Of a stretch of DNA of 35,814 nucleotides, positions 468 through 29,625 are shown piece by piece. The position numbers and the translations under genes are program-made. The notes beneath the pieces are model-generated. The model did no database searches. It was given only the letters and a program-made list of their open reading frames with translations, and was not told the DNA's origin. How positions within the stretch are numbered: position 1 is the first letter of the stretch; the number at the start of each line of letters is the position of its first letter. Source of the DNA: Bacteroidota bacterium (GTDB taxonomy: Bacteria; Bacteroidota; Ignavibacteria; Ignavibacteriales; Melioribacteraceae); assembly GCA_021801605.1 (NCBI GenBank), contig JAJYXU010000117.1, forward strand, positions 1 to 35,814, in the 5' to 3' direction.

Positions 468-3400
468 ATGTATTATGATGTGATCGAAGAGCTAACCAGA
501 AGTTTTTATGAATGGGAACACCGAGGAAGAGGGTGGGACGTGTGGGATTATCCAGTAGAACTTGAACCCCCGTTCGTTCCATTCTATTTCCACTCAATTC
601 AAAAGACGAATCATATTGATGACGGCTACAAACAAACATTCATGAGCTCTGTTATTGAAAAAGTGAAACGCAAATGGAATAAGTTTTCTGATGAACATAT
701 CAAACTTGATGATAAATTTCCTGAACCATCTGAATATGTTTCTGCAACTCAATTTCAATGTGATGAAAAGATCGAAGAACTTATCGTGGTTTTTCCACAA
801 AATTATAAAGTGAACTCGGAATATATTGAGCAATGTCTCCTTGGTATAACCACTAGTACATACCCGGTTAGTTTTGAAATTATTGGCTCAGAAAAATCTA
901 TTACTGTACAATTTGCCTGTCGTGAATCGGATTCATTATACATTTCCCAACAAATTCATGCGTTCTTTCCTGATGCAATAATAACAGTTGGGCAAAATTT
1001 ACTGCAATCCTTACTGGCTGAGACAAAAGAAATTGCAGTAGTTGATTTCGGTCTCTCGGAAGAATTTATGCGTCCACTTCGAACATTTAAAACGTTCGAC
1101 CCAGACCCGTTGACGAGCGTTTTCGGAGTACTCGAAAACCTAAATGAAGGTGAAAAAGGAATCATTCAAATACTCTTTCAAGTAGTAGACTCACCTTGGA
1201 CAACGAGTATTATGAGATCAGTTTTAAATGATGATGGTGATTCTTTTTTTATTGATGCGCCTGAAATGGTGAAACTTGCGAAAGAAAAATGTAAACATCC
1301 TCTTTTTGCGGTTATAATTCGAATAGCAGCGACTACTAAATCTCAACAACGGGCATGGGAAATATTGAAAGCGCTGACCGGATGTTTCACCGTTTTTTCT
1401 GATCCTTACAGCAATGAGTTGATTCCTTTAACAAATCAAGATTATGAAAATGAACAACATCTTGCTGACATCATCATGCGACAGTCACACCGTAGTGGAA
1501 TGATTCTGAACAGTGCTGAATTGATTTCATTTGTTCATTTCCCCTCAGAAACGATTGTATCAAAGAAACTAACGCGGCAAATACAAAAAACAATTGAAAC
1601 CCCTTCTGTTGTAATCGGAAACAAATTTGTTCTTGGGGAAAATGTTCACAACAATAAAAAGACGGTTGTTTCCCTAAATTATGAACAACGACTCCGGCAT
1701 ATGCATATTATTGGTTCAACCGGCACCGGTAAATCTACTTTACTTCTTAATCTTATTACTCAAGATATTCAAAGTGGATTAGGGATTGCAGTACTCGATC
1801 CTCACGGTGATCTCATTGAATCGATTCTTGAGAGAGTTCCTGAGAATAGGCATGAAGACGTCATTCTGTTCGACCCGGGTGATGAAGAGTATCCTGTAGG
1901 ATTTAATATTCTCGAAGCAAAGACTAAGGTAGAAAAAAACGTCTTGTCTTCTGACCTTGTTGAAATTTTTCGAAGATTCTCTACAAGCTGGGGAGATCAA
2001 ATGAGTGTTGTACTGGGCAACGCAATTTCAGCGTTCTTAGAAAGTAACCGCGTGGGATCATTGACGGACTTGAGAAGATTCCTAATTGAGAAAGGATTTC
2101 GAGAAACATTTTTGCAAGAAGTAACAGATGAACATATCAAATACTTTTGGGATAAGGAATTCTCACTATTACGAGGAAGCGCACTCAATTCCATACTTAC
2201 CCGGCTTGATTTTTTCCTTAGACCAAAAACCATTCGAAATATTGTGTCACAACAAAGAGGCATCGATATTGAAGATATCGTTAATCACAAAAAGATATTC
2301 TTGGTAAAGTTAGCTCAAGGAATTATAGGTGATGAAAACGCTTATTTATTAGGCTCACTCCTTGTCTCAAAACTACACCAAGTAGTTATGCAAAGACAAC
2401 TACTAAGCCACCATGAAAGAACTCCATTCTATTTATATATAGATGAATTCCAGAATTTTATCACTGCATCGATGAAAGCTATTATGTCGGGGGCCCGAAA
2501 ATATTCTCTTGGATTGATTCTCGCCCATCAGGATTTGCATCAATTATGGGAATTAGATGTTGCCCTAGCAAACTCAATACTCTCAAATGCCGGTACACGA
2601 ATTTGTTTTCGGATAGGAGATTTTGATGCTCAAAAGTTACAAAGTGGCTTTGCTCACTTTGATATAAATGATCTGCAAAGTCTTAGTATAGGTGAAGCGA
2701 TTGTTCGGGTGGAGCGTTCTGATTGTGATTTTAATCTTAGAACGTTTCTACCTTCTGAAATTAATATTCACTATGGTCAACAAAACAAAGAAAAGATTAT
2801 TGGTCTTTCGAGGAAAAAGTATGGAATAGCACCAGTTGCTGTTGATAAGAAACAAGAAGCATCCGAAACTTTCCATCAACCTCCCTATCCCAAACAAAAA
2901 GAAACCACAACAAAGAAAATTGTGGTCAATGCTAATCTTGATGTGTTGGATGATGATAACAGGAGAATGAATGGAAAGAATGTATCACAACATCGGTTTC
3001 TTCAGACACTCATTAAACGATTAGCCGAACAACGAGGATATAAAGCTACGATTGAGGAAGCAACAAATGATAAACTTGGGAGAGTCGATGTAGGACTTGA
3101 ACGTGATGGGGAAAAGATCGCCTGTGAAATTTCAGTAACGACAAATGATGACCATGAAATAAAAAATATAGAGAAATGTTTTCAATCGGGATATGGTAAA
3201 GTATTGTTCTGTTCTACTGAGAAGAAGCGACTAGAAGCCATGAAAAAATTAATTACTGAAAAATTGGAATTAAAATTTAGTAGTAATGTTTTTCTATTTC
3301 TTCCTGATGAAATTATTTTGTTCTTTGAGAATGAAACCACAAATGAGATTAAGTTGCAGAGTGAAAATATTTTGAAGGGATATCGAGTAAAGGTAGAGTA

Positions 3401-3494
3401 TAAAACAATCTCTGAATCACAGAAAAAAGAAAAACAAGAAGTAGTGAGTGGAGTTGTTGTAAATGCGCTTAGGAGATTGAAGGGAGATAGGTAA
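468..3494 (+). CDS. HerA/VirD4-type ATPase with C-terminal nuclease-like domain
   Basis: A 1008-residue protein of the HerA/FtsK/VirD4 superfamily (the class often labelled type IV secretory conjugative DNA transfer protein). Walker A GSTGTGKST is at residues ~416-424, followed by AVLDPHGDL; the Walker B-like strand LYIDEFQNF is at ~655-663. The first ~390 residues are a family-specific N-terminal region without a motif I know. A linker rich in Lys, Gln and Pro (~800-835) leads to a C-terminal domain (~843-930) with GRVDVGLERDGEKIACEIS. Its D...E-x-S spacing resembles a PD-(D/E)xK nuclease core with the lysine missing or shifted. Known members are hexameric DNA pumps or DNA-end processors; transfer or defence are both possible here. 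The start ATG has a GAGAGGG ribosome-binding site. No relaxase or pilus gene is visible in the window. Confidence 0.82.
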   Translation: MYYDVIEELTRSFYEWEHRGRGWDVWDYPVELEPPFVPFYFHSIQKTNHIDDGYKQTFMSSVIEKVKRKWNKFSDEHIKLDDKFPEPSEYVSATQFQCDEKIEELIVVFPQNYKVNSEYIEQCLLGITTSTYPVSFEIIGSEKSITVQFACRESDSLYISQQIHAFFPDAIITVGQNLLQSLLAETKEIAVVDFGLSEEFMRPLRTFKTFDPDPLTSVFGVLENLNEGEKGIIQILFQVVDSPWTTSIMRSVLNDDGDSFFIDAPEMVKLAKEKCKHPLFAVIIRIAATTKSQQRAWEILKALTGCFTVFSDPYSNELIPLTNQDYENEQHLADIIMRQSHRSGMILNSAELISFVHFPSETIVSKKLTRQIQKTIETPSVVIGNKFVLGENVHNNKKTVVSLNYEQRLRHMHIIGSTGTGKSTLLLNLITQDIQSGLGIAVLDPHGDLIESILERVPENRHEDVILFDPGDEEYPVGFNILEAKTKVEKNVLSSDLVEIFRRFSTSWGDQMSVVLGNAISAFLESNRVGSLTDLRRFLIEKGFRETFLQEVTDEHIKYFWDKEFSLLRGSALNSILTRLDFFLRPKTIRNIVSQQRGIDIEDIVNHKKIFLVKLAQGIIGDENAYLLGSLLVSKLHQVVMQRQLLSHHERTPFYLYIDEFQNFITASMKAIMSGARKYSLGLILAHQDLHQLWELDVALANSILSNAGTRICFRIGDFDAQKLQSGFAHFDINDLQSLSIGEAIVRVERSDCDFNLRTFLPSEINIHYGQQNKEKIIGLSRKKYGIAPVAVDKKQEASETFHQPPYPKQKETTTKKIVVNANLDVLDDDNRRMNGKNVSQHRFLQTLIKRLAEQRGYKATIEEATNDKLGRVDVGLERDGEKIACEISVTTNDDHEIKNIEKCFQSGYGKVLFCSTEKKRLEAMKKLITEKLELKFSSNVFLFLPDEIILFFENETTNEIKLQSENILKGYRVKVEYKTISESQKKEKQEVVSGVVVNALRRLKGDR

Positions 3495-3573: not shown

Positions 3574-4500
3574 TTGAAAGAAATTATAATTGACATTGGT
3601 GACAGTACTAGAAATGAAATGAGATGGTTGGCGTTTTATCGTTCTCTAGAATCCAAATCTATCAAAAAAGGTAATCAGGTAATTATTGATTTTGAAAACG
3701 TCACGTTTATCATCCCTTTTTGTCTCCTTGGTTTGTTAGCTTTTATTAAATCTGCATTTGAAGTAACTCAAAAAAAAGTTAAGCTCAAGAATATTCCCTT
3801 GAGTCCAGTTATTTACCAATACATGGAAAGAGCAGATTTTTTTAAGTATGCTAAAAAGTATTGTGTCATCGTTGGCGATTATACGGATGTAGCATTGTGG
3901 GAACGAGATAAAGAAGCTAAAAAAATGTATGGAATTATTGAGATTGAAAAAGATCCAATTAAGAGTGCCAATAAAATAGCTCAGACAATTGATGAATTGC
4001 AGAAGAGATACAAGTATATTCTTGATTTCTTTTCTACAAATCATAAAAATGCAAATATCTTCTTTACTATATTATCTGAGATTACCGCCAATATTCCAGA
4101 ACATAGTAATTCCACTGGATATTTATTAGTGCAAAAATGGGAGAGCCCAACCAAAGGGAAAATTTTCACCAGTCTTTCTATCATTGATACAGGTATAGGA
4201 ATTAGAGGAAGACTCGAAAGACAAATAAAGACTCGTAAGAGGAAACTTCCTAAAAATCTTCATAGTGACTCTGATTTTTTAAGATATGCTTTCAGTGAAG
4301 ATGGTACTCGAAGTGGTGCTGGATTACATAGTGTTATCCGATCTCTTAGTGAATGGAATCCAAACGATACAGCTTTATTGGTTCTTTCTGGTAATGGGAT
4401 AATGTATAAATCTCAAGGCTCAAGTGACATAGAATTTACAGATGAGGATCAATATTTTCAGGGCACACATGCAACCATTTGGTTTTATGGAGATATTTAA
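3574..4500 (+). CDS. STAS-like plus histidine-kinase-type ATPase protein
   Basis: A 308-residue protein with two parts. Residues ~1-95 look like a STAS-type fold (VIIDFENVTFIIPFCLLGLL). Residues ~150-305 carry GHKL/HATPase_c signatures: an N-box-like helix ILSEITANIPEHS (~165-178), the G1 box DTGIGI (~203) and the G2 box GAGLHSV (~248). No phospho-accepting histidine domain is seen, so it is more like an anti-sigma-factor kinase (SpoIIAB/RsbW-like) than a sensor kinase. The next gene encodes a STAS-like/HTH protein, so the pair is probably a partner switch in which the ATPase modifies or binds the STAS partner. The proposed start is TTG with no strong ribosome-binding site, so the N-terminus is uncertain. 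The ligand or signal is unknown. Confidence 0.75.
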   Translation: MKEIIIDIGDSTRNEMRWLAFYRSLESKSIKKGNQVIIDFENVTFIIPFCLLGLLAFIKSAFEVTQKKVKLKNIPLSPVIYQYMERADFFKYAKKYCVIVGDYTDVALWERDKEAKKMYGIIEIEKDPIKSANKIAQTIDELQKRYKYILDFFSTNHKNANIFFTILSEITANIPEHSNSTGYLLVQKWESPTKGKIFTSLSIIDTGIGIRGRLERQIKTRKRKLPKNLHSDSDFLRYAFSEDGTRSGAGLHSVIRSLSEWNPNDTALLVLSGNGIMYKSQGSSDIEFTDEDQYFQGTHATIWFYGDI

Positions 4501-4502
4501 AC

Positions 4503-4551
4503 TTGACAATCATTTTTAAAACACCTACCTTTAAGTAGAAGATGCTTAAGG
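4503..4551 (+). promoter_or_regulatory. Putative promoter with operator-like dyad before STAS-HTH gene
   Basis: TTGACA at 4503-4508 is followed 17 bases later by TACCTT (4526-4531), a possible sigma-70-type promoter. Overlapping it is the imperfect dyad CCTTTAAG (4528-4535) / CTTAAGG (4545-4551), which covers the first possible start codon (4542). Its whole 27-base context closely matches the dyad at 5159-5183. The overlap with the start of transcription and translation suggests a repressor site, possibly for the encoded HTH protein. Confidence 0.45.
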
Positions 4552-5144
4552 GTATGGTAAAAAAACAAAACAAAATAGAGATTTATCAGGTAGCCCAAAA
4601 AGCGGGATGGAATACTCCGAACACTTTAATTTGGAGAGAGCCCGCACAAAAAATGAGACCTGAATTTGTGAAGCGATTATATAAAGAAAACGAAACAGTG
4701 TGTGAATTAGATTTTTCTGGAATTGAGACGGCAGATGGTTCTTTTATTGATGAGTTTCTTGTGACTGAATTAAAAAACATGGACGCTGGCAAGGTAAGTA
4801 AAAAAGCAATTTATCTTTCCAATCTTAATGATGTTGTTTTGTATAACATCGAATTAGTTTTTACAAAAAAGCGTCCAGCTGGAGAAAAATTTTATATGAT
4901 GTTTCGTAAAGCAGATGGAACTTGGGAGCTGTTTTCAGAAGGAATCGAAGCATCATTAAAAGAAACATTAGAGTATATAATGCTAAAGAAAGAGCTAACA
5001 TCTAATGATGTTTCTAAAAAATTTAAAATCAGTGTTCCTGCTGCTTCGGTAAGATTAAAAAACTTATTTGATATGAGAATCGTGAACAGAAAAGACGAAA
5101 CAACATCGACAGGAAAGGAATTTGTGTATGAATCTATCTTTTGA
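4542..5144 (+). CDS. STAS-like (DUF4325-type) and helix-turn-helix regulator
   Basis: A 200-residue protein. The middle part (~50-120) contains CELDFSGIETADGSFIDEFL, the pattern of STAS-like DUF4325 proteins. The C-terminus (~141-190) reads like a winged helix-turn-helix (LTSNDVSKKFKISVPAASVR), ending in a short wing. It directly follows the STAS/ATPase gene and is flanked on both sides by matching dyads (4528-4551 and 5159-5183). I infer that it is the DNA-binding output of an ATPase-controlled partner switch, regulating itself and the ubiquitin-like operon downstream. ATG at 4554 is an alternative start that would remove four residues; the first dyad overlaps both. The DNA-binding role is not shown directly. 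Confidence 0.72.
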   Translation: MLKGMVKKQNKIEIYQVAQKAGWNTPNTLIWREPAQKMRPEFVKRLYKENETVCELDFSGIETADGSFIDEFLVTELKNMDAGKVSKKAIYLSNLNDVVLYNIELVFTKKRPAGEKFYMMFRKADGTWELFSEGIEASLKETLEYIMLKKELTSNDVSKKFKISVPAASVRLKNLFDMRIVNRKDETTSTGKEFVYESIF

Positions 5145-5158
5145 TTTTTTTTGCCCTA

Positions 5159-5183
5159 CTCTTAAGTATAATTTGCTTAAGAG
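5159..5183 (+). promoter_or_regulatory. Perfect dyad enclosing a TATAAT box before ubiquitin-like operon
   Basis: CTCTTAAG (5159-5166) and CTTAAGAG (5176-5183) are perfect reverse complements, and the 9-base centre begins with TATAAT (5167-5172), a consensus -10 box. Only poor -35 candidates precede it (TTGATT at 5141). A protein bound to the two arms would sit on the -10 box. The sequence aligns closely, without gaps, with the dyad at 4528-4551. Confidence 0.5.
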
Positions 5184-5269: not shown

Positions 5270-5797
5270 ATGAACGATTCAAAAGAAGTAAACAAAAATC
5301 AAAATGAACAGAATACTCATCCTGATCATTTGAAAAAGGAAATTGATGAGCTTGAACAAAAAGCTGAGAAACTCGAAGAGGTAGCTGACCAATTTGAGAA
5401 TGATGCTGAAAAACTTCATGAAGAAGCACACAAACTTGAAGAGAAGGCAGAGCAGCTTGAGAAAAAAGCACATCAACTGGAAAAGGAAGCTGATAAACTG
5501 GAAGATAGAGCAGAAGAGCTTGAAGAAAAAGTTGAACAGCTAGAGCATGAAGAAGAACAAAAGGAATTTACCATTTCTGTGAATGGGAGAATGAAAACCG
5601 TTCAAGGAAAAACAATCTCGTATGATCAGTTGGTAGTTCTTGCGTTTGAAAACCCGAACCCTGATCTCAAAATAATTTATACTGTTAACTACAGTAAGGG
5701 TCCTAAACACAATCCAAAGGGCTCAATGGTACAAGGCGATATTGTTAAACTAAAAGAAGGAATGATATTCAATGTTACAGCAAGTAATCAGTCTTAG
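5270..5797 (+). CDS. Coiled-coil ubiquitin-like protein (Multi_ubiq type)
   Basis: A 175-residue protein. Residues 31-93 are nine consecutive heptads of the form xAxxLEx (Ala and Leu at fixed places, with Phe41 and Val88 the main exceptions), with one looser heptad before: a long, highly charged coiled coil that should oligomerise. Residues ~98-173 match the bacterial Multi_ubiq ubiquitin-like domain, with ISYDQLVVLAF, YSKGPKHNPKGSMVQGD and the family's ending MIFNVTASNQS. There is only one such domain and no C-terminal Gly-Gly; as I recall, family members commonly end this way. A strong AAAGGAG site precedes the start. The stop overlaps the next gene by 26 bases, so translation is probably coupled to the E1-like enzyme. 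It is the likely modifier or substrate of that enzyme; the conjugation target is unknown. Confidence 0.8.
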   Translation: MNDSKEVNKNQNEQNTHPDHLKKEIDELEQKAEKLEEVADQFENDAEKLHEEAHKLEEKAEQLEKKAHQLEKEADKLEDRAEELEEKVEQLEHEEEQKEFTISVNGRMKTVQGKTISYDQLVVLAFENPNPDLKIIYTVNYSKGPKHNPKGSMVQGDIVKLKEGMIFNVTASNQS

Positions 5798-6947
5798 TCC
5801 CGACCTTAAAAGATTGTGGGATGAAGGTTTTGAATTAGAGGTCAAACATGGCTATCTATTAGTACACAATGTTCCTTATGTTACTTCGTCAAAAGAAATA
5901 AAGAGCGGCACCCTCATATCAACGCTTGATCTTGCAGGTGAAGTAACTAAAAAACCTGAAACGCACGTAATCTATTTTATTGGAGAATATCCATGTCAAA
6001 AGGATGGCTCGCCCATCCTTGCGATTAAACATCAAAATGGGGATCAGAATCTTGGAAATAAGATCGTCGTAAATTATTCGTTCTCGAATAAACCCGCAGA
6101 TGGGTATCCCACCTACTACGAAAAAATAAAACGATACTTCGAAATTATTTCGAACCACGCAAAATCATTGAATCCTGATGTCGAAGTGAAAAAATACGAG
6201 GTTCATCTTACTGAAGATGAGGAATCTGTATTTAATTATTCGGACACAAATTCGAGTCGAGCAAAGATTAATGCACTACAGGAAAAACTGGAATCACAAA
6301 AAATCGTAATTGTCGGCTTAGGAGGAACCGGATCGTATATTTTAGATTTGGTTGCAAAAACTCCAGTTAAAGAAATACATCTGTTTGACGGTGATGAATT
6401 TCTACAACACAACGCATTCCGTTCCCCTGGAGCCCCTTCACTTGAAAAACTCCGAGAGCGGAAAAAGAAAGTAGATTATTTTGCTGAGGTATACTCTAGG
6501 ATGCATAAGAGGATTATTCCCCATCCAGAATTTATCAGCAATGAAAACATCAATCAATTACTTGACAGTTATTTTGTATTTCTTGCAATCGATGGTAGTC
6601 AGGTAAAAAAGGATTTGATTGAATTTTGTATAAACAATAAAATTCCATTTGTTGATGTGGGGATGGGTTTACAGCTTGCAGATAATGAACTGGTAGGCAT
6701 TGTCCGAGTCACTACTGGACTAACTTCTAAAATAGATCATCTTGAAAAAAGAATTTCTTTTTCGGACGAATCTGAAAACGCTTATGCAAGCAATATTCAA
6801 ATAGCGGATTTGAATTCATTAAATGCAGCGTTGGCAGTCATCAAGTGGAAAAAGATATTTTCTTACTATCAAGATTTAGGAAAGGAATGCAATAGCAACT
6901 ATGCGATAAATACAGGAGAATTATTCAATGAAGACTTTGTCGTATGA
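5772..6947 (+). CDS. DUF6791-ThiF fusion, E1-like activating enzyme
   Basis: A 391-residue protein. Residues 1-~150 match the DUF6791 domain usually found in front of ThiF domains (LSPDLKRLWDEGFELEV at the start, HVIYFIGEYPC near 65-75). Residues ~175-390 are a ThiF/MoeB/E1 adenylating domain: nucleotide-binding VIVGLGGTGS (~178-187), FDGDEF then N and R (~205-218) and the crossover-loop-like AIDGSQ (~270). This family adenylates the C-terminus of ubiquitin-like proteins. No cysteine is present at the usual thioester position of the ThiF domain; the only Cys residues are ~75, ~286 and ~373. The gene overlaps its neighbours on both sides, giving a coupled three-gene operon. No separate E2 or JAB peptidase gene is present; whether the N-terminal domain takes the E2 role is unknown. 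Confidence 0.83.
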   Translation: MLQQVISLSPDLKRLWDEGFELEVKHGYLLVHNVPYVTSSKEIKSGTLISTLDLAGEVTKKPETHVIYFIGEYPCQKDGSPILAIKHQNGDQNLGNKIVVNYSFSNKPADGYPTYYEKIKRYFEIISNHAKSLNPDVEVKKYEVHLTEDEESVFNYSDTNSSRAKINALQEKLESQKIVIVGLGGTGSYILDLVAKTPVKEIHLFDGDEFLQHNAFRSPGAPSLEKLRERKKKVDYFAEVYSRMHKRIIPHPEFISNENINQLLDSYFVFLAIDGSQVKKDLIEFCINNKIPFVDVGMGLQLADNELVGIVRVTTGLTSKIDHLEKRISFSDESENAYASNIQIADLNSLNAALAVIKWKKIFSYYQDLGKECNSNYAINTGELFNEDFVV

Positions 6948-7290
6948 GTTTGTGGAATATATTCCAGACCAAATGGAAGAAGGTAAACTTTATGTTTCAA
7001 TTCCCAATTGTGTGGCGATTCATAAATGTTGCTGTGGATGCCATACCGAAGTAGTTACTCCTCTATCCCCTGATGCTTGGAGATTAATTTTTGATGGAGA
7101 ATCAATTTCGTTATATCCCTCAATTGGTAATTGGCAATTTGCCTGTAAGTCCCACTACTGGATTAAGAATAATACCGTTGAATGGGCTAAATCATGGGAA
7201 GATACAATGGCTGAGAAGAATCGCAGTAAAAAATCTAATAAAAAAATGTTCTCGAAATTTTTGAAACATTTTTCTAAAAGAAAAAAATAA
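6928..7290 (+). CDS. DUF6527 putative zinc-binding protein
   Basis: A 120-residue protein matching DUF6527, a family that recurs next to Multi_ubiq and ThiF genes. Visible signatures are the Cys/His cluster HKCCCGCH (Cys34, 35, 36, 38 and His39), SLYPSIGNW (~61-69) and FACKSHYWI (Cys73, His76), a plausible single zinc site. A lysine/arginine-rich tail (~98-120) follows the domain. It overlaps the E1-like gene by 20 bases and ends the operon. The family's biochemical role is not known to me; a ligase-like adaptor or target-recognition part is a guess based on the metal site and the neighbours. Confidence 0.78.
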   Translation: MKTLSYEFVEYIPDQMEEGKLYVSIPNCVAIHKCCCGCHTEVVTPLSPDAWRLIFDGESISLYPSIGNWQFACKSHYWIKNNTVEWAKSWEDTMAEKNRSKKSNKKMFSKFLKHFSKRKK

Positions 7291-7440: not shown

Positions 7441-9051
7441 ATGCGTAAATTTATGTCCATGGAAAGTGTACTTGTGCATATAGTCGATAATAAAGGCAAA
7501 TCACCTACTCAAGTAGCTGATGAGATAGGGAGTCAATATCTTGCGGAAATTGACATTGCTCAAAGAAAGGGGCTAGGGCAATTTTTTACTCCCCCCTTAG
7601 TTGCTCAATTTATGTCGTCGTTTTACGTATCACCAAACACCAAAATTTCAGAGATTAAAATTCTTGATCCAGGCGGAGGGACCGGAATTCTTTCGTGTGC
7701 ATTGATTGAAAGAATAGTGCAATCACACAAGTACCCTAAAAAGATCACTTTAACAATCTATGAGATTGATAGTGATCTTTCGAAGTATACTTCCCAAGTA
7801 TTAGAATATCTTAAATTATGGTTACAAGATGAATATGATGTTCAATTCATCTATACGTTATATACCGGTGATTTTATTTATGCCTATGCAGATACGCTTG
7901 AAAACCAAAATCGCATAGATGAGGAATACGATATAATCATTTCAAATCCCCCTTATTTCAAAATCCAAAAAACTGATGGACGAGTCAAGGCAAACGATAC
8001 GATTGTTCATGGACAACCAAATATATATGCGATGTTTCTGCACACAGCAGCTAGTTTACTGAGGGAGGGTGGCCAACTTATTTTTATAACTCCGCGTAGT
8101 TTTTCTTCGGGATTATATTTTAGGTTATTTCGAGAAAGATTTTTTTCCTTAGTTGATCTTGAATCAGTTCATCTATTTGAATCACGAACAGATGCATTTA
8201 AACGTGATGCAGTGCTTCAAGAAAATATTATTATATCAGCGAGACGAGTCACACGTAATAAATCCATTCATAAAATTACAATATCCACATCGCAAGGAAT
8301 ATCTGATATAGAGAACAAATCCATAGAACTTTATTCCTTTGACGAAATTTTTGATCGAACATCTTATCAAAAAATACTTCATCTTCCATCATCAAGAGAT
8401 GAAGCGGAAGTTGTTAAGCTCTTTAAGTCGTGGAAGGGAAATTTAAATGCATACAACATTCAAATATCCACAGGGCCGGTAGTATCATATCGTGCACGAC
8501 AATATATTTTTGCTACACAACAACCTGACATGGTGCTTGCCCCATTATATCTTTTATATAACGCCTCAAAAATGAAATGGGAATGGCCCGTATCTAGGAA
8601 TAATAAGGAACAATATATACAGGTATGCGACGATACTAAATCGCTTCTGATACCAAATAAGAACTATATTTTCCTGCGTAGATTTAGCTCGAAAGATGAT
8701 CATAGCAGATTAATCGCAACTCCATATTTTGCTGACAATGTTGAATCGAATGTGATTGGTGTTGAAAACCATCTCAACTATATTTATAGACCTCATGGAC
8801 ATTTAGACCGAAGAGAAATACTCGGGCTTTCAGCACTGCTCAATAGTTCACTGTTCGATACCTATTTTAGAACCTTCAATGGCAACATTAATGTGAGCGC
8901 TACTGAATTACGTGAAATGCCGTTACCTGATATTTCGCTCATCATGGAGTTAGGAAATAAATTGATACTCGAAAATAATTTTACTCAAAACGTAGTCGAT
9001 GAAATTGTAAGACAATTTTTCAAATCAAGGGAGGAGCTGAGAGTCGCATGA
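7441..9051 (+). CDS. Type II N6-adenine DNA methyltransferase, BsuBI/PstI type
   Basis: A 536-residue methyltransferase, slightly longer than M.BsuBI and M.PstI (about 500). GLGQFFTPPLVAQFM (~41-55) leads into motif I ILDPGGGTGIL (~77-87), which binds S-adenosylmethionine. The catalytic motif IV ISNPPYF is at ~166-172, the order expected for gamma-class adenine methyltransferases. The C-terminal half should hold the target-recognition region. It overlaps the endonuclease gene by 4 bases, the usual coupled arrangement. By family it should modify adenine in CTGCAG or a related site, protecting host DNA; the exact specificity cannot be read from sequence. AAGGA lies directly before the first ATG, so ATG 7453 or 7459 may be the true start. 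Confidence 0.87.
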   Translation: MRKFMSMESVLVHIVDNKGKSPTQVADEIGSQYLAEIDIAQRKGLGQFFTPPLVAQFMSSFYVSPNTKISEIKILDPGGGTGILSCALIERIVQSHKYPKKITLTIYEIDSDLSKYTSQVLEYLKLWLQDEYDVQFIYTLYTGDFIYAYADTLENQNRIDEEYDIIISNPPYFKIQKTDGRVKANDTIVHGQPNIYAMFLHTAASLLREGGQLIFITPRSFSSGLYFRLFRERFFSLVDLESVHLFESRTDAFKRDAVLQENIIISARRVTRNKSIHKITISTSQGISDIENKSIELYSFDEIFDRTSYQKILHLPSSRDEAEVVKLFKSWKGNLNAYNIQISTGPVVSYRARQYIFATQQPDMVLAPLYLLYNASKMKWEWPVSRNNKEQYIQVCDDTKSLLIPNKNYIFLRRFSSKDDHSRLIATPYFADNVESNVIGVENHLNYIYRPHGHLDRREILGLSALLNSSLFDTYFRTFNGNINVSATELREMPLPDISLIMELGNKLILENNFTQNVVDEIVRQFFKSREELRVA

Positions 9052-9983
9052 GCAAGATTGAAGAAGCACGAATTATCCTTCAAGAATTTGGATTACCCAA
9101 AGCACAACAAAATGAAATGGCAGCACTCACGCTTCTTGCTCTTTGTGGAATTACTGAAGCTGATAAATGGAGTTCAGCAAAACGGAAAAGCTTGCAGGTA
9201 ACCAAAGGTATTATGCAATTTATGACAGATCAGTATAAAAAGTCATATGCACCTAATACACGAGAGACGGTTCGCCGACAAGTACTTCATCAGTTTGTAC
9301 AAGCAAGAATTGCTGATTATAATCCTGATGATGTTACTCTACCCGTAAACAGCCCACGCGCTCATTATGCAATATCACAAGCCGCTCTGAAAGTGATTAA
9401 AACATACGGTACTAAAAAATGGCATGATGCGCTCACACAATTCAAGGAAGAGGTTGGTGAGCTCACAAAGAAATATGTAAAAGATCGTGATATGCAAATG
9501 ATTCCCTTGCAACTACCTGACGGATCAGTCATAAAGCTTTCACCCGGAAAACATAATAAAGTGCAGGTAGCCATTGTCAATCAATTCGCCTCTCGCTTTG
9601 CCCCAGGTGGACTGCTCTTATATCTTGGTGATACGGCTAAAAAAGATTTGATTACCGAGACTAAAAAACTATCTGAACTAGGCATCCCAATAAATCAGCA
9701 CAGTAAACTTCCCGATGTGGTAATATTTGATCCTCAGAGAAATTGGCTGTTTCTTATTGAAGCGGTTACTTCACATGGACCAATTACTCCGAAGCGGATT
9801 GTGGAGTTAGAAGACCTGCTTAAAAATTGTCATGCAGGGAAAATTTACGTATCAGCATTTCCTGATTTTGCTGAATTCAAGAGACACACGAATGACTTAG
9901 CGTGGGAAACAGAAGTATGGATTATGGAACATCCAACACATATGATTCATTTTAATGGTGATAAGTTTCTTGGACCAAGATGA
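9048..9983 (+). CDS. Type II restriction endonuclease, BsuBI/PstI family
   Basis: A 311-residue protein, close to R.BsuBI (316) and R.PstI (326). The C-terminal catalytic region reads LPDVVIFDPQRNWLFLIEAV then TSHGPI (~221-247), the family's variant of the PD-(D/E)xK core, and FLGPR at the end is typical. The N-terminal ~150 residues are helical and should form the DNA-recognition part. It is translated with the methyltransferase through an ATGA overlap. No small controller (C) protein gene precedes the pair; the XRE regulator at 11618 is 1.6 kb away and reads the other way. The reading frame appears intact, so an active system is plausible. Recognition of CTGCAG is expected from the family, not proven. 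Confidence 0.87.
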   Translation: MSKIEEARIILQEFGLPKAQQNEMAALTLLALCGITEADKWSSAKRKSLQVTKGIMQFMTDQYKKSYAPNTRETVRRQVLHQFVQARIADYNPDDVTLPVNSPRAHYAISQAALKVIKTYGTKKWHDALTQFKEEVGELTKKYVKDRDMQMIPLQLPDGSVIKLSPGKHNKVQVAIVNQFASRFAPGGLLLYLGDTAKKDLITETKKLSELGIPINQHSKLPDVVIFDPQRNWLFLIEAVTSHGPITPKRIVELEDLLKNCHAGKIYVSAFPDFAEFKRHTNDLAWETEVWIMEHPTHMIHFNGDKFLGPR

Positions 9984-11621
9984 GAAATGAGTAGTATATA
10001 AAATCTACGAGACGAAATAATGCTTGATTTCTTGTCGATGAAAGAGAGGGAAAAACTCCTCAAAGAAATGAGCATCATTAAAGATGAACCTGAATCTAGA
10101 ACAATACCCGTGTTATTATGGAGGACAACACTTCTCAGATTAGAAAAGTTTAGTCGAAAAAAGCTGCACAAGAAAGAAGTGGTTCAAGTGTATAAATCAT
10201 TCTGTGACTCCAATGGAATTTCACTTGCAACGCTCTACCGAAAAAAACTATCGTTTCGGAAAAATGGCATTAAAGGATTAATGCCAGCATATCATCAGAA
10301 TAAAATCCACAAAAAGAAAATAGATGATGTTGAGTATTTAGAAATCCAGCATCGAATTGATTTGAAACATCCGATTGAATCAATTCTCGAAATTGTAGAT
10401 AATCTTAGCGATGCGAAATCAATCGATGCGTCAAAAAAGGAATTGTTAAAAACAGTATCGCATTTTCTTGATTCCATCAAAAGTTTTCGAGGAACTAATA
10501 ATGCGTTGAAAGTTCATAGAACACTTAACAAAGATGAATTACAAACATTGCATGATCTCAAAAGCAGTATTCATAGAAATGTTTCCCAACGAGCGATTGT
10601 TGTTGAAATGCTCTTACGCAATGAACCGCTTATTGAAATCGTGAGTAAGAGTAAACGAAACGCAAAAACAATTTATCGATGGAAGAGTCGATTCGAAAAT
10701 GAAGGGATGAATTTTCTAAATGTAAAACGGAGCGGTGAATCATTTCAGAAAATTATGGAAGAACGAAAAAACAGAATTGCGAAAATAATTCACTACCCAC
10801 CGAATCATTATGACATCAATAGATCATCATGGAGTTTGATTGCTTTAGCAGAAGCATATCAAAAAGAACACAAGGAAAGAATCGGCCCTCATGCGATTTC
10901 TCGTGCTATTAAAGAAATGGGATACACTTTTAAGAAAGCGCAAAAAGTTCTTACGAGTGAAGATCCTCAGTATCAAGAAAAAGTAACGGCAATTAAGGAA
11001 GTTAAATCGTCACTGAATGATACTGATTCATTATTCTTTATAGATGAAGCGGGTCCCTGGGCTGTAAAGCCATATGGTGGAAAATCAATTCACGCACCAG
11101 GAGAAGTTAAAACATATCCTCAATATCCTTCTAAGAAAGGCAGTATCACCTTTATAGGAGCGTACGAGGCAACGAAGAAAATTATTCTCTGGAAGTTTAT
11201 TAGCCAAAAGAATTCTGAGGCAGTTATCGAAATTCTAAAAATAATTGTTCGCTACGCTCATCATAAAAAACAGGTATTTGTTACATGGGATTCTGCATCA
11301 TGGCACGATTCCAAATCTCTACATGATTTTATAGAGTTTCACAATACATCACATGAGCCAAAAATTATCATCTTACCATTGCCATCAAAAGCGCAATATC
11401 TCAATACGATAGAATCATATTTTAGCGGAATGAAGAAAGCCATCATTCATAACAGCAATTACCAAAGTAGCGATGAAATGATCGCGGCAATCGTAAGATA
11501 CTTCAAAGAAAAAAACTTGAGAAATCTAAAAAAGTATTCTCAGGATAAATTTATTGAAGCAGACTTCGAAAGCGGACTACATAAAAAAATAAACTGAGGT
11601 TTACACTAAAAAATTTCTCAT
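9980..11621 (+). mobile_element. Possible IS630-like unit with short inverted ends
   Basis: The transposase gene lies between two inverted copies of ATGAGAAAT (9980-9988 and 11613-11621), with looser similarity a few bases inward (TAGT and AAA-CT). The left copy contains the stop codon of the endonuclease and the right copy the stop codon of the XRE gene. There is no clear TA duplication outside the repeats, which IS630 insertions normally leave, so the boundaries are uncertain and the repeats may be chance. Confidence 0.3.
10020..11597 (+). CDS. IS630-like DDE transposase with extended N-terminus
   Basis: A 525-residue transposase, well above the ~340 residues usual for IS630. The catalytic half has the DDE_3 pattern: LFFIDEAGPW (first Asp ~342), VFVTWDSASWHDS (second Asp ~424) and YLNTIESYFSGMKK (Glu ~465). 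The N-terminal half has two successive helix-turn-helix-like units (ISLATLYRKKLSFRKNGIKG, ~60-85, and KSKRNAKTIYRWKSRFENEG, ~215-238) joined by a helical linker, which should bind the element ends. All three acidic residues are present, so it may be active. It lies between the restriction genes and the convergent XRE gene and may be a passenger IS or part of the island itself. Confidence 0.8.
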   Translation: MLDFLSMKEREKLLKEMSIIKDEPESRTIPVLLWRTTLLRLEKFSRKKLHKKEVVQVYKSFCDSNGISLATLYRKKLSFRKNGIKGLMPAYHQNKIHKKKIDDVEYLEIQHRIDLKHPIESILEIVDNLSDAKSIDASKKELLKTVSHFLDSIKSFRGTNNALKVHRTLNKDELQTLHDLKSSIHRNVSQRAIVVEMLLRNEPLIEIVSKSKRNAKTIYRWKSRFENEGMNFLNVKRSGESFQKIMEERKNRIAKIIHYPPNHYDINRSSWSLIALAEAYQKEHKERIGPHAISRAIKEMGYTFKKAQKVLTSEDPQYQEKVTAIKEVKSSLNDTDSLFFIDEAGPWAVKPYGGKSIHAPGEVKTYPQYPSKKGSITFIGAYEATKKIILWKFISQKNSEAVIEILKIIVRYAHHKKQVFVTWDSASWHDSKSLHDFIEFHNTSHEPKIIILPLPSKAQYLNTIESYFSGMKKAIIHNSNYQSSDEMIAAIVRYFKEKNLRNLKKYSQDKFIEADFESGLHKKIN

Positions 11622-12061
11622 AACGGTTTTCCTTTATTGAACTGTTTGCGAAAAAAGTCATTTACTCTGAACAGAAAATCTTTCGATGACTTTCTTTTAT
11701 TAGCTTCCCACTTTGCTAAGGTAGTCGGATCGATGTCTATTTCTTTTGCTAAATTTTTCTGTGAAATACCCCGTAACTTTCGATACAGTTTTATCTGATC
11801 TCCCAAAGAAAGAGTATCGAGTTGAAATGGGATATATCCAAGAAATTCTATGATCTTCGGGATATATTTAATAGATGGGTTGCTTAGATTCTTTTCCCAA
11901 TTATAAATACTTGTTTCCTCGACACCTATAATACGAGCAATATCCTTTTGAAATAGATTTTGCTCTAGTCTTCGTTTTCTTATATGTCCCCCTAAGGATT
12001 GTGGATTTTTGAGAATATTTGATGGTTTTTGAGCTGTTAGTATCAACTTGCAGATTGGCAA
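11618..12061 (-). CDS. Tandem-HTH XRE-family regulator at the island edge
   Basis: A 147-residue protein with two Cro/C1-type helix-turn-helix domains: IRKRRLEQNLFQKDIARIIG with SIYNWEKN (~27-60) and IKLYRKLRGISQKNLAKEID with TLAKWEAN (~88-120). The two halves look like an internal duplication. The only upstream start codons in frame are TTG at 12061 and TTG at 12046; the frame stays open past the island edge into comM DNA, where AAGGA precedes the first TTG. Its promoter and ribosome-binding site may therefore come from comM, or the gene may have lost its original 5' end. It is convergent with the transposase. It could regulate the island or the restriction genes; no target is shown. Confidence 0.72.
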   Translation of the reverse strand: MPICKLILTAQKPSNILKNPQSLGGHIRKRRLEQNLFQKDIARIIGVEETSIYNWEKNLSNPSIKYIPKIIEFLGYIPFQLDTLSLGDQIKLYRKLRGISQKNLAKEIDIDPTTLAKWEANKRKSSKDFLFRVNDFFRKQFNKGKPL

Positions 12062-12069
12062 CGCAGGTA

Positions 12070-12555
12070 TGTCCTTGTGGTTTTTTTACTGATCCTAATA
12101 AGGAATGCACCTGCAATACAATGCAAATTCAAAAATATATGGCAAAAATTTCAGGTCCTCTTTTAGACAGAATTGATATTCATATTGAAGTTCCCGCAGT
12201 AAAGTTTAAAGAGCTGGCTTCTAGCTCTACCGGCGAAAAATCAAGTGAAATTAGAAAACGAGTAATCTCTGCAAGAGAAATCCAGCAATTGAGATTTTCC
12301 GGAATAAAAAATATTTATAAAAATGCGGACATGGCATCTAAGGAAATCCGTAAATTCTGTAAAGTTGATAATCAATGTGAAGAATTATTAAAGATGGCAA
12401 TGACACGGTTAGGATTGTCGGCTCGGGCTTATGATAGAATTCTAAAAGTGAGCCGAACAATAGCTGACTTAGATGGATCAACTGAAATAAGGCCGCAACA
12501 CATTTCTGAGGCGATTCAATACAGAAGTTTAGATAGGGAATTATGGGGGCATTAG
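12070..12555 (+). pseudogene. comM: comM/yifB C-terminal fragment, cut by the island
   Basis: The frame gives CPCGFFTDPNKECTC, then KISGPLLDRIDIHIEVP, SARAYDRILKVSRTIADL and AIQYRSLDREL. These are hallmarks of the Mg-chelatase-like AAA+ protein ComM/YifB from its NPCPCG motif to the C-terminus, about 161 of ~510 residues. The sequence before residue CPCG is island DNA, so the ATP-binding part is separated and this fragment cannot work alone. In other bacteria ComM is a branch-migration helicase used in natural transformation, and comM is a known target for genomic islands such as the AbaR group in Acinetobacter. The remaining reading frame has no internal stop, suggesting a recent insertion. 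Confidence 0.85.
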
Positions 12556-29154: not shown

Positions 29155-29625
29155 ATGGCTGAACTTAAGATGCCAGAACTTAATAGTGTTATTGTTGCGG
29201 GCAACCTTACAAAAGACCCCGTCTTCAGACAGACTTCTAATAGTACACCGGTCGTAAATTTTCACGTTGCGGCAAACAGAAGATATAAAGACAGCAGCAA
29301 TCAATGGCAAGAAGATGTTTGCTATGTTGGCGTTGTTGCATGGAATAAATTAGCAGATAGCTGCAAAGACCGTCTTAAAAAAGGAAGCGCTGTTTTAATT
29401 GATGGGGAACTTCAAAGCAGAACTTTCAAAACAGAAGATGGAAAAAACAGAACGATCGTTGAGATTAAAGCTAAGAGAATTCAATTCCTGAATAAATTTG
29501 CAAAAACAGCCGGTAACGGCGAAGATATTGTTGTTGAATCTGACGAAGCAGATTATGAAGATAACTCATTCGATAAATTTCTAACCGATGAAGAATCAAA
29601 CTTAATGAAGAGTAACAAATTATGA
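29155..29625 (+). CDS. ssb: Single-stranded DNA-binding protein
   Basis: A 156-residue SSB with the OB fold: [19 protein letters not shown] (~7-25), [28 protein letters not shown] and [23 protein letters not shown] precedes ATG 29155, so the in-frame ATG at 29143, which overlaps that site, is rejected. After an acidic stretch (~125-150) the protein ends SNLMKSNKL and lacks the usual DDDIPF-like tip used to bind partner proteins. Its stop overlaps the rpsR start by 4 bases. Confidence 0.92.

What the first reader, a model, noticed from the sequence alone, without database searches (positions are those of the whole stretch)
5270..7290. Compact three-gene ubiquitin-like system with a modifier built on a nine-heptad coiled coil
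The sequence shows a Multi_ubiq-type domain fused to a nearly perfect nine-heptad coiled coil, then a DUF6791-ThiF E1-like enzyme and a DUF6527 Cys/His protein, all in overlapping frames. Families of this type are known from bacterial ubiquitin-like operons, but this set has a single Ubl domain instead of a tandem, no separate E2 and no JAB peptidase. A coiled-coil modifier could be a self-assembling scaffold that displays many Ubl domains, or a polymer that is itself the substrate. This is the best candidate here for a poorly described system.
Basis: partly seen in the sequence, partly recalled or inferred. Interest (0 to 1): 0.78.

Follow-up and report, generated by a model that had tools for sequence, protein, structure and literature searches.

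The report
Coiled-coil ubiquitin-like modifier operon
A bacterial genome carries, on what looks like a mobile island, a small ubiquitin-like protein-tagging operon of a kind already known in outline, whose tag is attached to a long self-pairing helix and ends in an unusual final amino acid, which makes it a new variant worth testing rather than a new system.

Summary
ORFs 5270-5797, 5772-6947 and 6928-7290 encode a Multi_ubiq domain behind a coiled coil (ten heptads, not nine), a DUF6791-ThiF E1 and a DUF6527 protein. The system is not unknown. The trio recurs across phyla and public records name its genes. It is a sister of the published Bub operons: the nearest solved E1 is Citrobacter BubCD, the nearest solved Ubl 9cd2. 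Two genes upstream resemble CapK/CapS regulators. Unlike Bub, the operon lacks the Prok-E2_E enzyme and the JAB domain. It may have its own peptidase, because a DUF6527 relative is named a ubiquitination-like serine protease. Three features stand out. (1) Only the window's own Ubl, 1 of 96 distinct loci, has a strong coiled coil. (2) In those 96 loci the Ubl ends in Ser, not Gly, and overlaps the E1 start by exactly 26 nt; in 15 later loci one ends in Ala and one overlap was scored differently. (3) The ThiF part has no fully conserved Cys, while DUF6791 has near-invariant His65, Cys75 and Ser105. Best reading: a DNA-damage-controlled conjugation operon with DUF6791 as its E2-like part (not shown) and a pre-oligomerised modifier. 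New variant of a known kind.

The parts
3574..4500 (+). CapK-like GHKL kinase (no N-terminal HTH domain found)
   Evidence: N-box region aligns with the CapK-position gene of a Citrobacter-type Bub operon, BLASTP E 6e-6 over 74 aa; HATPase_c only weak, E 0.046, below cut-off.
4528..4552 (+). second operator-like palindrome, CCTTTAAG-N9-CTTAAGGG, at the capS start
   Evidence: Matches the palindrome at 5159 with 3 mismatches; the pattern has three matches in the window against 0.30 expected, and 2 of 100 shuffles reach three.
4542..5144 (+). CapS-like STAS-like + winged-HTH protein; Ser67 aligns with Ser54 of the CapS-position protein
   Evidence: BLASTP E 1e-8 over 144 aa with the Citrobacter-type gene; HTH_5 E 1.4e-4 just over its cut-off, DUF4325 STAS-like E 0.0028 below its cut-off.
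5159..5183 (+). perfect operator-like palindrome CTCTTAAG-N9-CTTAAGAG upstream of the Ubl gene
5270..5797 (+). Ubl modifier, 175 aa: coiled coil + beta-grasp
5342..5551 (+). ten-heptad coiled coil (aa 25-94)
5561..5794 (+). beta-grasp Ubl domain (aa 98-175), C-terminal Ser175
   Evidence: Multi_ubiq; VIA Z 12.8, rmsd 2.8, 78 aligned, to 9cd2; Ser at the end in 93 of 93 distinct tails.
5772..5797 (+). 26-nt Ubl/E1 overlap, the same length in 96 of 96 distinct loci
5772..6947 (+). DUF6791-ThiF E1 enzyme (NF004805 / PRK06153.1-4), 391 aa
   Evidence: 570 bits over nearly the full length, cut-off 352; model pLDDT 88.9.
5799..6248 (+). DUF6791 domain with His65, Cys75, Ser105; candidate E2-like part
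   Evidence: Pfam aa 10-159; 79/79 H65, 78/79 C75, 79/79 S105.
6273..6944 (+). ThiF adenylation domain; no fully conserved Cys
   Evidence: Pfam; nearest fold BubCD 9ea4, Z 24.8, rmsd 2.5, 220 aligned; conservation.
6928..7290 (+). DUF6527 Cys/His protein; candidate Ubl-specific protease (last gene, as in Bub)
   Evidence: Pfam; product name of the relative in E. coli ES2; next to the E1 in 103 of 107 loci.

Best explanation
This is a Bub-like protein-conjugation operon of the DUF6791-E1 branch, carried on a probable mobile island and switched on by DNA damage through a CapK/CapS-like pair. Proposed steps: (1) ssDNA activates the kinase, which phosphorylates CapS Ser67; CapS leaves its palindromes and the operon is expressed (inferred from PMC13373217). 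(2) The ThiF domain adenylates the Ubl C-terminus, here Ser175 (the adenylation domain and the conserved terminus are shown; the reaction is inferred). (3) The Ubl passes to a nucleophile in the fused DUF6791 domain, Ser105 or Cys75, which acts as a built-in E2 (inferred; the homology test failed). (4) It is conjugated to an amine on a target (inferred). (5) DUF6527 removes it (from a product name). In this species the Ubl sits on a parallel coiled coil in the place where many relatives have further N-terminal sequence, such as extra Ubl domains, so each tag event would deliver a bundle of Ubl domains (inferred).
For: Domain hits. Nearest solved E1 is BubCD by profile, E 9e-10, and by fold, Z 24.8. 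Nearest solved Ubl is 9cd2, 44% identity, Z 12.8 against 8.9 for the next. DUF6527 is next to the E1 in 103 of 107 loci. 36 of 102 loci carry an HExxH-type motif in one of the two nearest upstream genes (at least three of these are UvrD-like helicases), and one M78/HTH pair, one fused HTH-M78 protein, one WYL and one LexA-like protein were confirmed by Pfam. CapS-like Ser alignment and paired palindromes. Ser C-terminus in 93/93 distinct tails and overlap -26 in 96/96 loci. No fully conserved Cys in ThiF; H65/C75/S105 conserved in DUF6791. Separate DUF6791 and ThiF ORFs in L016 and L020 suggest that the two parts are separable modules. Parallel in-register charge score -6, against +2 to +12 for 11 antiparallel registers.
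Against: A profile comparison of DUF6791 with Prok-E2_E is no better than chance: score 13.25, 72 of 200 column shuffles reach it, and a JAB sequence and three unrelated alignments score higher. L041 lacks Cys75. No HTH of CapK was found in the window kinase and its GHKL hit is weak. Four loci replace DUF6527 by a different gene. One Ubl ends in Ala, L118. Bub operons have not been shown to protect against phage (PMC13373217, passage). Changing the C-terminal Gly of the CBASS substrate cGAS to Ser abolished its conjugation (PMC10097602, passage). The PADLOC library of 2023 has no match to the window's DUF6527.
Confidence: 0.55

Rival explanations
1. The Ubl is not a transferable tag. The E1 modifies the Ubl C-terminus or a small molecule, as MccB does with its peptide, and the coiled-coil Ubl is the scaffold or effector itself.
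For: MccB and PaaA, E1-like enzymes, are the next-best fold matches by Foldseek. The Ubl ends in Ser, not Gly. No recognisable E2 in the operon.
Against: BubCD is nearer than MccB. DUF6527, whose relative bears a protease name, would fit reversible conjugation. DUF6791 is strongly conserved with candidate nucleophiles.
Confidence: 0.2
2. DUF6527 is a zinc-binding adaptor, E3-like, rather than a protease. It brings targets to the E1.
For: C34, C36, C38 and C73 with H32 and H76 are kept in 98 of 98 aligned members and look like metal ligands (the zinc reading is inference).
Against: The product name of a relative is a serine protease. Ser65 and Ser75 are also 98/98.
Confidence: 0.25
3. The coiled coil is an incidental tail that does not change how the modifier works.
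For: It is present in 1 of 96 distinct loci only, and many relatives have only a short N-terminal tail.
Against: A perfect ten-heptad a/d pattern is hard to keep without selection. Relatives carry other N-terminal modules at the same place, including extra Ubl domains (three Multi_ubiq stretches in L008).
Confidence: 0.3

Closest known systems
Bub (bacterial ubiquitination-like) operons, e.g. Citrobacter BubA, BubB, BubCD
   Same: Multi_ubiq Ubl, related E1 domain, DUF6527 as last gene, and in the plasmid read a kinase-like and a wHTH gene in front.
   Different: The Bub plasmid read has Prok-E2_E fused to the Ubl and a JAB domain on the E1; other Bub loci have a separate E2; Bub Ubls read here as separate ORFs end in Gly in 3 of 4. 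Here DUF6791 is in the JAB place, there is no E2 gene, the Ubl ends in Ser and overlaps the E1 by 26 nt.
Multiubiquitin / ThiF (DUF6791) / DUF6527 trio, E1 family PRK06153
   Same: Same three genes and order. E1 matches in 115 plasmid records, 54 of the 60 listed naming both ThiF and multiubiquitin; a trio in 3 of 5426 E. coli genomes by a DNA search that misses distant copies.
   Different: Relatives differ in the N-terminal part of the Ubl; none of the 95 other distinct loci has the strong coiled coil.
9cd2, E. coli ZDHYS365 multi-ubiquitin protein (solved structure)
   Same: Closest solved Ubl, 44% identity over 78 residues.
   Different: 222-aa chain in which the matched domain is the last (149-221); the rest was not compared for a coil.
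CapK/CapS DNA-damage controllers (PMC13373217)
   Same: Kinase-like gene then STAS-like wHTH gene directly upstream; aligned Ser; paired palindromes.
   Different: No N-terminal HTH found in the window kinase; GHKL and STAS only by weak hits and alignment.
CBASS Cap2 (E1 and E2 in one protein)
   Same: An extra domain fused to an E1; no separate E2.
   Different: Cap2 uses Cys residues and a Gly/Ala-ended substrate, cGAS (PMC10097602, passages); here no fully conserved E1 Cys and a Ser end.

Membership tests
Bub operon | Multi_ubiq ubiquitin-like protein | tested here: met
   PF14452 E 4.3e-17.
Bub operon | E1 adenylation domain of BubCD type | tested here: met
   Profile E 9e-10; fold Z 24.8, rmsd 2.5, 220 aligned. 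ThiF (23.7) and SUMO E1 (23.1) follow closely, so it is related but not exclusive.
Bub operon | Prok-E2_E enzyme (BubB) | tested here: not met
   No hit in the operon. The whole-genome search for PF14462 found none, but its control was silent too, so absence from the genome is open.
Bub operon | JAB domain in front of the E1 | tested here: not met
   DUF6791 instead; Prok-JAB present in the Citrobacter-type protein. That this is 'BubC' is inferred.
Bub operon | DUF6527 as last gene | tested here: met
   PF20137 in both; BLASTP E 3e-8. That this gene is 'BubE' is recalled and inferred, not read in a call.
Bub operon | Ubl C-terminal Gly | tested here: not met
   Ser here and in 93/93 distinct tails. 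Gly ends 3 of 4 Bub Ubls read as separate ORFs (the fourth, L130, runs past its Gly) and the Citrobacter BubA construct.
Multiubiquitin/DUF6791-E1/DUF6527 trio | three genes, order and 26-nt overlap | tested here: met
CapK/CapS | CapS: winged-HTH domain, gene directly before the operon | tested here: met
   HTH_5 just over cut-off; BLASTP E 1e-8 to the CapS-position gene.
CapK/CapS | CapS: STAS domain with the phosphorylated Ser | tested here: inconclusive
   STAS-like DUF4325 below cut-off; Ser67 aligns with Ser54 of the CapS-position protein, the number that PMC13373217 gives for E. roggenkampii CapS.
CapK/CapS | CapK: HTH-STAS-GHKL | tested here: not met
   No HTH found; GHKL by weak hit and motif alignment only.
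CBASS Cap2 | E2 domain fused to E1 | tested here: inconclusive
   Strand and helix order of DUF6791 recalls E2 from memory, but the profile test against Prok-E2_E was at chance.
Anti-phage defence | protects against phage | not testable with these tools
   Context only: type II RM beside it, probable island.

The most novel reading that the evidence does not exclude
A branch of ubiquitin-like conjugation that uses a Ser-ended modifier, a fused DUF6791 domain as E2 with a Ser (or Cys) nucleophile, no JAB and no separate E2. In this species the modifier comes pre-assembled on a parallel coiled coil, so one conjugation event plants a cluster of Ubl domains.
Probability: 0.3. Interest if true: 0.75.

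Novelty: new variant of a known kind. Interest (0 to 1): 0.5.

Why it matters
Ubiquitin-like tags mostly end in Gly. A widespread family that ends in Ser, with its E1 and possible E2 in one chain, gives a three-gene set small enough to rebuild in a tube and ask how tags are passed on without the usual parts. The coiled coil tests whether bacterial Ubls work as oligomers: it may be a swap of one N-terminal assembly module for another.

Tried and rejected
DUF6791 as a detectable relative of Prok-E2_E: the motifs line up by eye, and local hhalign gives a collinear path, but the score is at chance: 13.25, with 72 of 200 column shuffles as high. A single JAB sequence (17.75) and the DUF6527, Ubl and ThiF alignments (14.0-14.8) score higher. 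A comparison with one BubB sequence also failed. I keep this as a lead only.

A second coiled-coil Ubl: L117 has a helical-looking N-terminus, but its heptads are not better than shuffles (0.22 and 0.11). No plasmid match covers 80% of the window Ubl or of the L117 Ubl; BLAST's low-complexity filter may mask such coils, so this is weak.

Phage genomes: no E1 match in the phage collection; 4 relatives in viral contigs. A viral scan with BubB found no relative.

A single-alpha-helix (ER/K) reading of the coil: rejected, since i+4 repulsions (16) exceed attractions (8). A DNA tandem repeat behind the coil: none found.

Programmed frameshift between Ubl and E1 as the reason for the constant overlap: no evidence gathered; I read the overlap as locked by the two conserved protein ends.

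DUF6527 by other libraries: no NCBIfam hit for the window or E. coli protein, no solved relative of the window protein. The Bub DUF6527 protein matches MbnC weakly (E 0.038, E 0.011); not followed.

DUF6527 count: a first script found 98 of 107 and I first took some misses for broken genes; a wider search shows 103 of 107, with only L027, L040, L053 and L063 lacking it.

Paper searches: DUF6527 in 0 papers. DUF6791, PF20590, PRK06153, ZDHYS365 and PF20137 in none; PF14452 in one. Other searches. I made no search for coiled-coil Ubls as such, so I do not claim that none is in print.
Full report
What is there. Three overlapping genes at 5270-7290 encode a 175-aa ubiquitin-like protein, a 391-aa DUF6791-ThiF enzyme and a 120-aa DUF6527 protein. 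The E1 matches NCBIfam NF004805 over residues 1-389 with 570 bits, cut-off 352. The Ubl has ten heptads at aa 25-94 with Ala at eight of ten a positions and Leu at nine of ten d positions; 0 of 20,000 shuffles reach ten. AlphaFold, on 29 sequences, gives one helix from 18 to 95 and then a beta-grasp (mean pLDDT 89.3, pTM 0.53). Summing charges on facing e and g positions favours a parallel in-register pair (-6) over the 11 antiparallel registers tried (+2 to +12); that is a crude count, not a structure.

How common it is. A Ubl was found directly upstream in 103; the four without were L104, L106, L016 and L020. L104 and L106 begin at or inside the E1 gene, and in L016 and L020 my script had anchored on the second half of a split E1; L016 does have a Ubl, with the same tail. 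After dropping the second copy of the window and near-duplicates, 96 of 102 loci remain as distinct. All 96 overlap by exactly 26 nt and all 96 end in Ser. Nucleotides show an ATG at -26 and T, C at the first two Ser codon positions in 93 of 93 distinct stretches, while the third Ser position varies. In 15 later loci, five of them second copies of earlier ones, 14 end in Ser and one (L118) in Ala; 14 overlap by 26 and my script placed one E1 start (L115) at -41. By length, 37 of the 96 Ubls are 110 aa or less, 5 are 111-145, 23 are 146-175, 30 are 176-260 and 1 is longer; the window Ubl (L001) is in the 146-175 class because of its coil. Lengths rest on the longest start, so some are too long, and they only stand in for domain number. 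The coil score is 2.0 in the window and at most 1.48 in the other 95; the loci were read by eye, and only L117 looked helical. The 80 genome loci are those nearest to A1, not a random sample. DUF6791 is sparse: 3 of 96 relatives and 13 of 395 in the phylum sample, own genome included in both, and 2 of 339, 5 of 337, 3 of 348 and 3 of 343 in four other samples, each including the genome it was centred on.

Relation to Bub. The best profile match in the PDB is Citrobacter BubCD, E 9e-10. Foldseek puts BubCD chains at ranks 1-8, and VIA gives Z 24.8, rmsd 2.5, 220 aligned, against 23.7 for ThiF. The Ubl is nearest 9cd2 (Z 12.8), then other bacterial multi-ubiquitin structures (8.9-8.4); BubA comes at 7.5, level with eukaryotic Ubl domains. 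A Citrobacter braakii plasmid shows this layout: a 368-aa protein with weak HTH and HATPase hits, a wHTH protein, a Ubl fused to Prok-E2_E, JAB-ThiF, DUF6527. The PDB constructs place BubA's end at Gly229 and BubB's start at about residue 230 of that fused chain. Of four Bub Ubls read as separate ORFs three end in Gly and the fourth runs past its Gly. So the window operon shares the Ubl, the E1 and the last gene, but not the E2, the JAB or the Gly. I therefore call it a Bub-like sister branch, not a Bub member. Whether the Bub authors count this branch among their 544 operons I cannot tell: Gong 2025 and Ye 2026 are not held. I know those two from reference lists; from memory, unchecked, the first reports one to three Ubl domains behind diverse N-termini with filaments, and the second oxyester intermediates.

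Chemistry. In 79 E1s the ThiF part keeps the residues of an adenylating enzyme (G184, G185, G187, D208, N214, R217, K233, D274 invariant; their roles are recalled), but its only frequent Cys, position 272, occurs in 63 of 79 and is Ala in the window. DUF6791 has His65 79/79, Cys75 78/79 and Ser105 79/79. This makes DUF6791 the natural place for an E2-like step, but its homology to E2 is not shown. In CBASS, mutating the final Gly of cGAS to Ser blocked conjugation (PMC10097602, passages read), so a Ser end must be handled differently or trimmed.

Third gene. DUF6527 follows the E1 in 103 of 107 loci; a narrower first script had found 98. The other four (L027, L040, L053, L063) carry a different gene within about 8 nt of the E1 stop. 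In the 98 aligned, H32, C34, C36, C38, S65, C73, S75 and H76 are in 98. The RefSeq record of E. coli ES2 names its DUF6527 protein a ubiquitination-like system serine protease; that is a name, not a test, and NCBIfam gave no hit for the window or E. coli protein.

Control. The two genes in front resemble CapK and CapS. PMC13373217 (abstract, section 7 and passages read) reports that 231 of 443 capK+capS pairs precede Bub operons, that CapS binds two sites, and that Bub has not been shown to protect against phage. A perfect palindrome lies at 5159-5183 and a 3-mismatch copy at 4528-4552; a third match, at 29162, is elsewhere. Three matches compare with 0.30 expected, and 2 of 100 shuffles reach three. 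In related loci the upstream genes differ: 36 of 102 have an HExxH-type motif (at least three are UvrD-like), and single cases of M78 with HTH, fused HTH-M78, WYL and LexA-like S24 were confirmed, while a sixth protein gave no hit. CapS was seen upstream in one other locus, L035. The regulators thus vary, but several belong to kinds linked with DNA damage (CapW and CapH+CapP in PMC13373217; LexA recalled).

Setting. The operon lies on a probable island that splits yifB: its N-terminal part is on contig C50 and its C-terminal part on this contig, with a serine-recombinase-like ORF beside the C50 part (identified by eye). That the two contigs join was not shown, and no direct repeat of 10 nt or more was found between the compared ends. 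A type II RM pair of BsuBI/PstI type follows the trio.

Verdict. The system is a variant of a known kind. Its most testable novelties are the Ser end with the locked overlap, the DUF6791 fusion where Bub has JAB and an E2, and the coil, which is private to this lineage in my sample.

Noticed in passing
window 12019-12555 and L128 74-1129 (contig C50): yifB/comM is split between two contigs, profile residues 1-348 and 343-499; a serine-recombinase-like ORF (L128 1116-2678, minus; by eye) abuts the N-terminal part, so the island probably inserted in yifB.
   Followed up: partly
window 468-3494: TraD/VirD4-like coupling ATPase (TrwB_AAD_bind E 4.9e-13) whose C-terminus looks by eye like a restriction-nuclease domain; a partial relative lies downstream of the E1 in L027.
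   Followed up: no
window 7441-9983: Type II RM pair: Eco57I/N6 methylase and BsuBI/PstI endonuclease.
   Followed up: no
window 10020-11597: Long (525 aa) IS630-family transposase (NF033545, 168 bits).
   Followed up: no
L027, L040, L053, L063, right after the E1: DUF6527 is replaced by a gene of about 650-690 aa starting MSKxTDLSHIY...GLTGQIGSGCS, P-loop-like by eye.
   Followed up: no
L007, L008, L009 upstream; L006 divergent: A three-gene module with a UvrD-like helicase sits beside the trio in Leptolyngbya, Klebsiella, Acinetobacter and Rhizobium plasmids.
   Followed up: no
L065, L070, L083, L091, L092, L094, L097, L100 upstream of the Ubl: A related protein of about 780-830 aa, subtilase-like by eye in L065, lies just upstream of the trio in eight loci; a shorter relative is in L013.
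   Followed up: no
   Followed up: partly
Ubl/E1 overlap in related loci: The Ubl stop codon is TAG in 74 of 93 distinct overlaps, TAA in 18 and TGA in 1, probably because the E1 frame favours Ser there.
   Followed up: partly
L108 5837-6175 (Citrobacter-type DUF6527): Weak match to the methanobactin protein MbnC (E 0.038; E 0.011 in the PDB).
   Followed up: no
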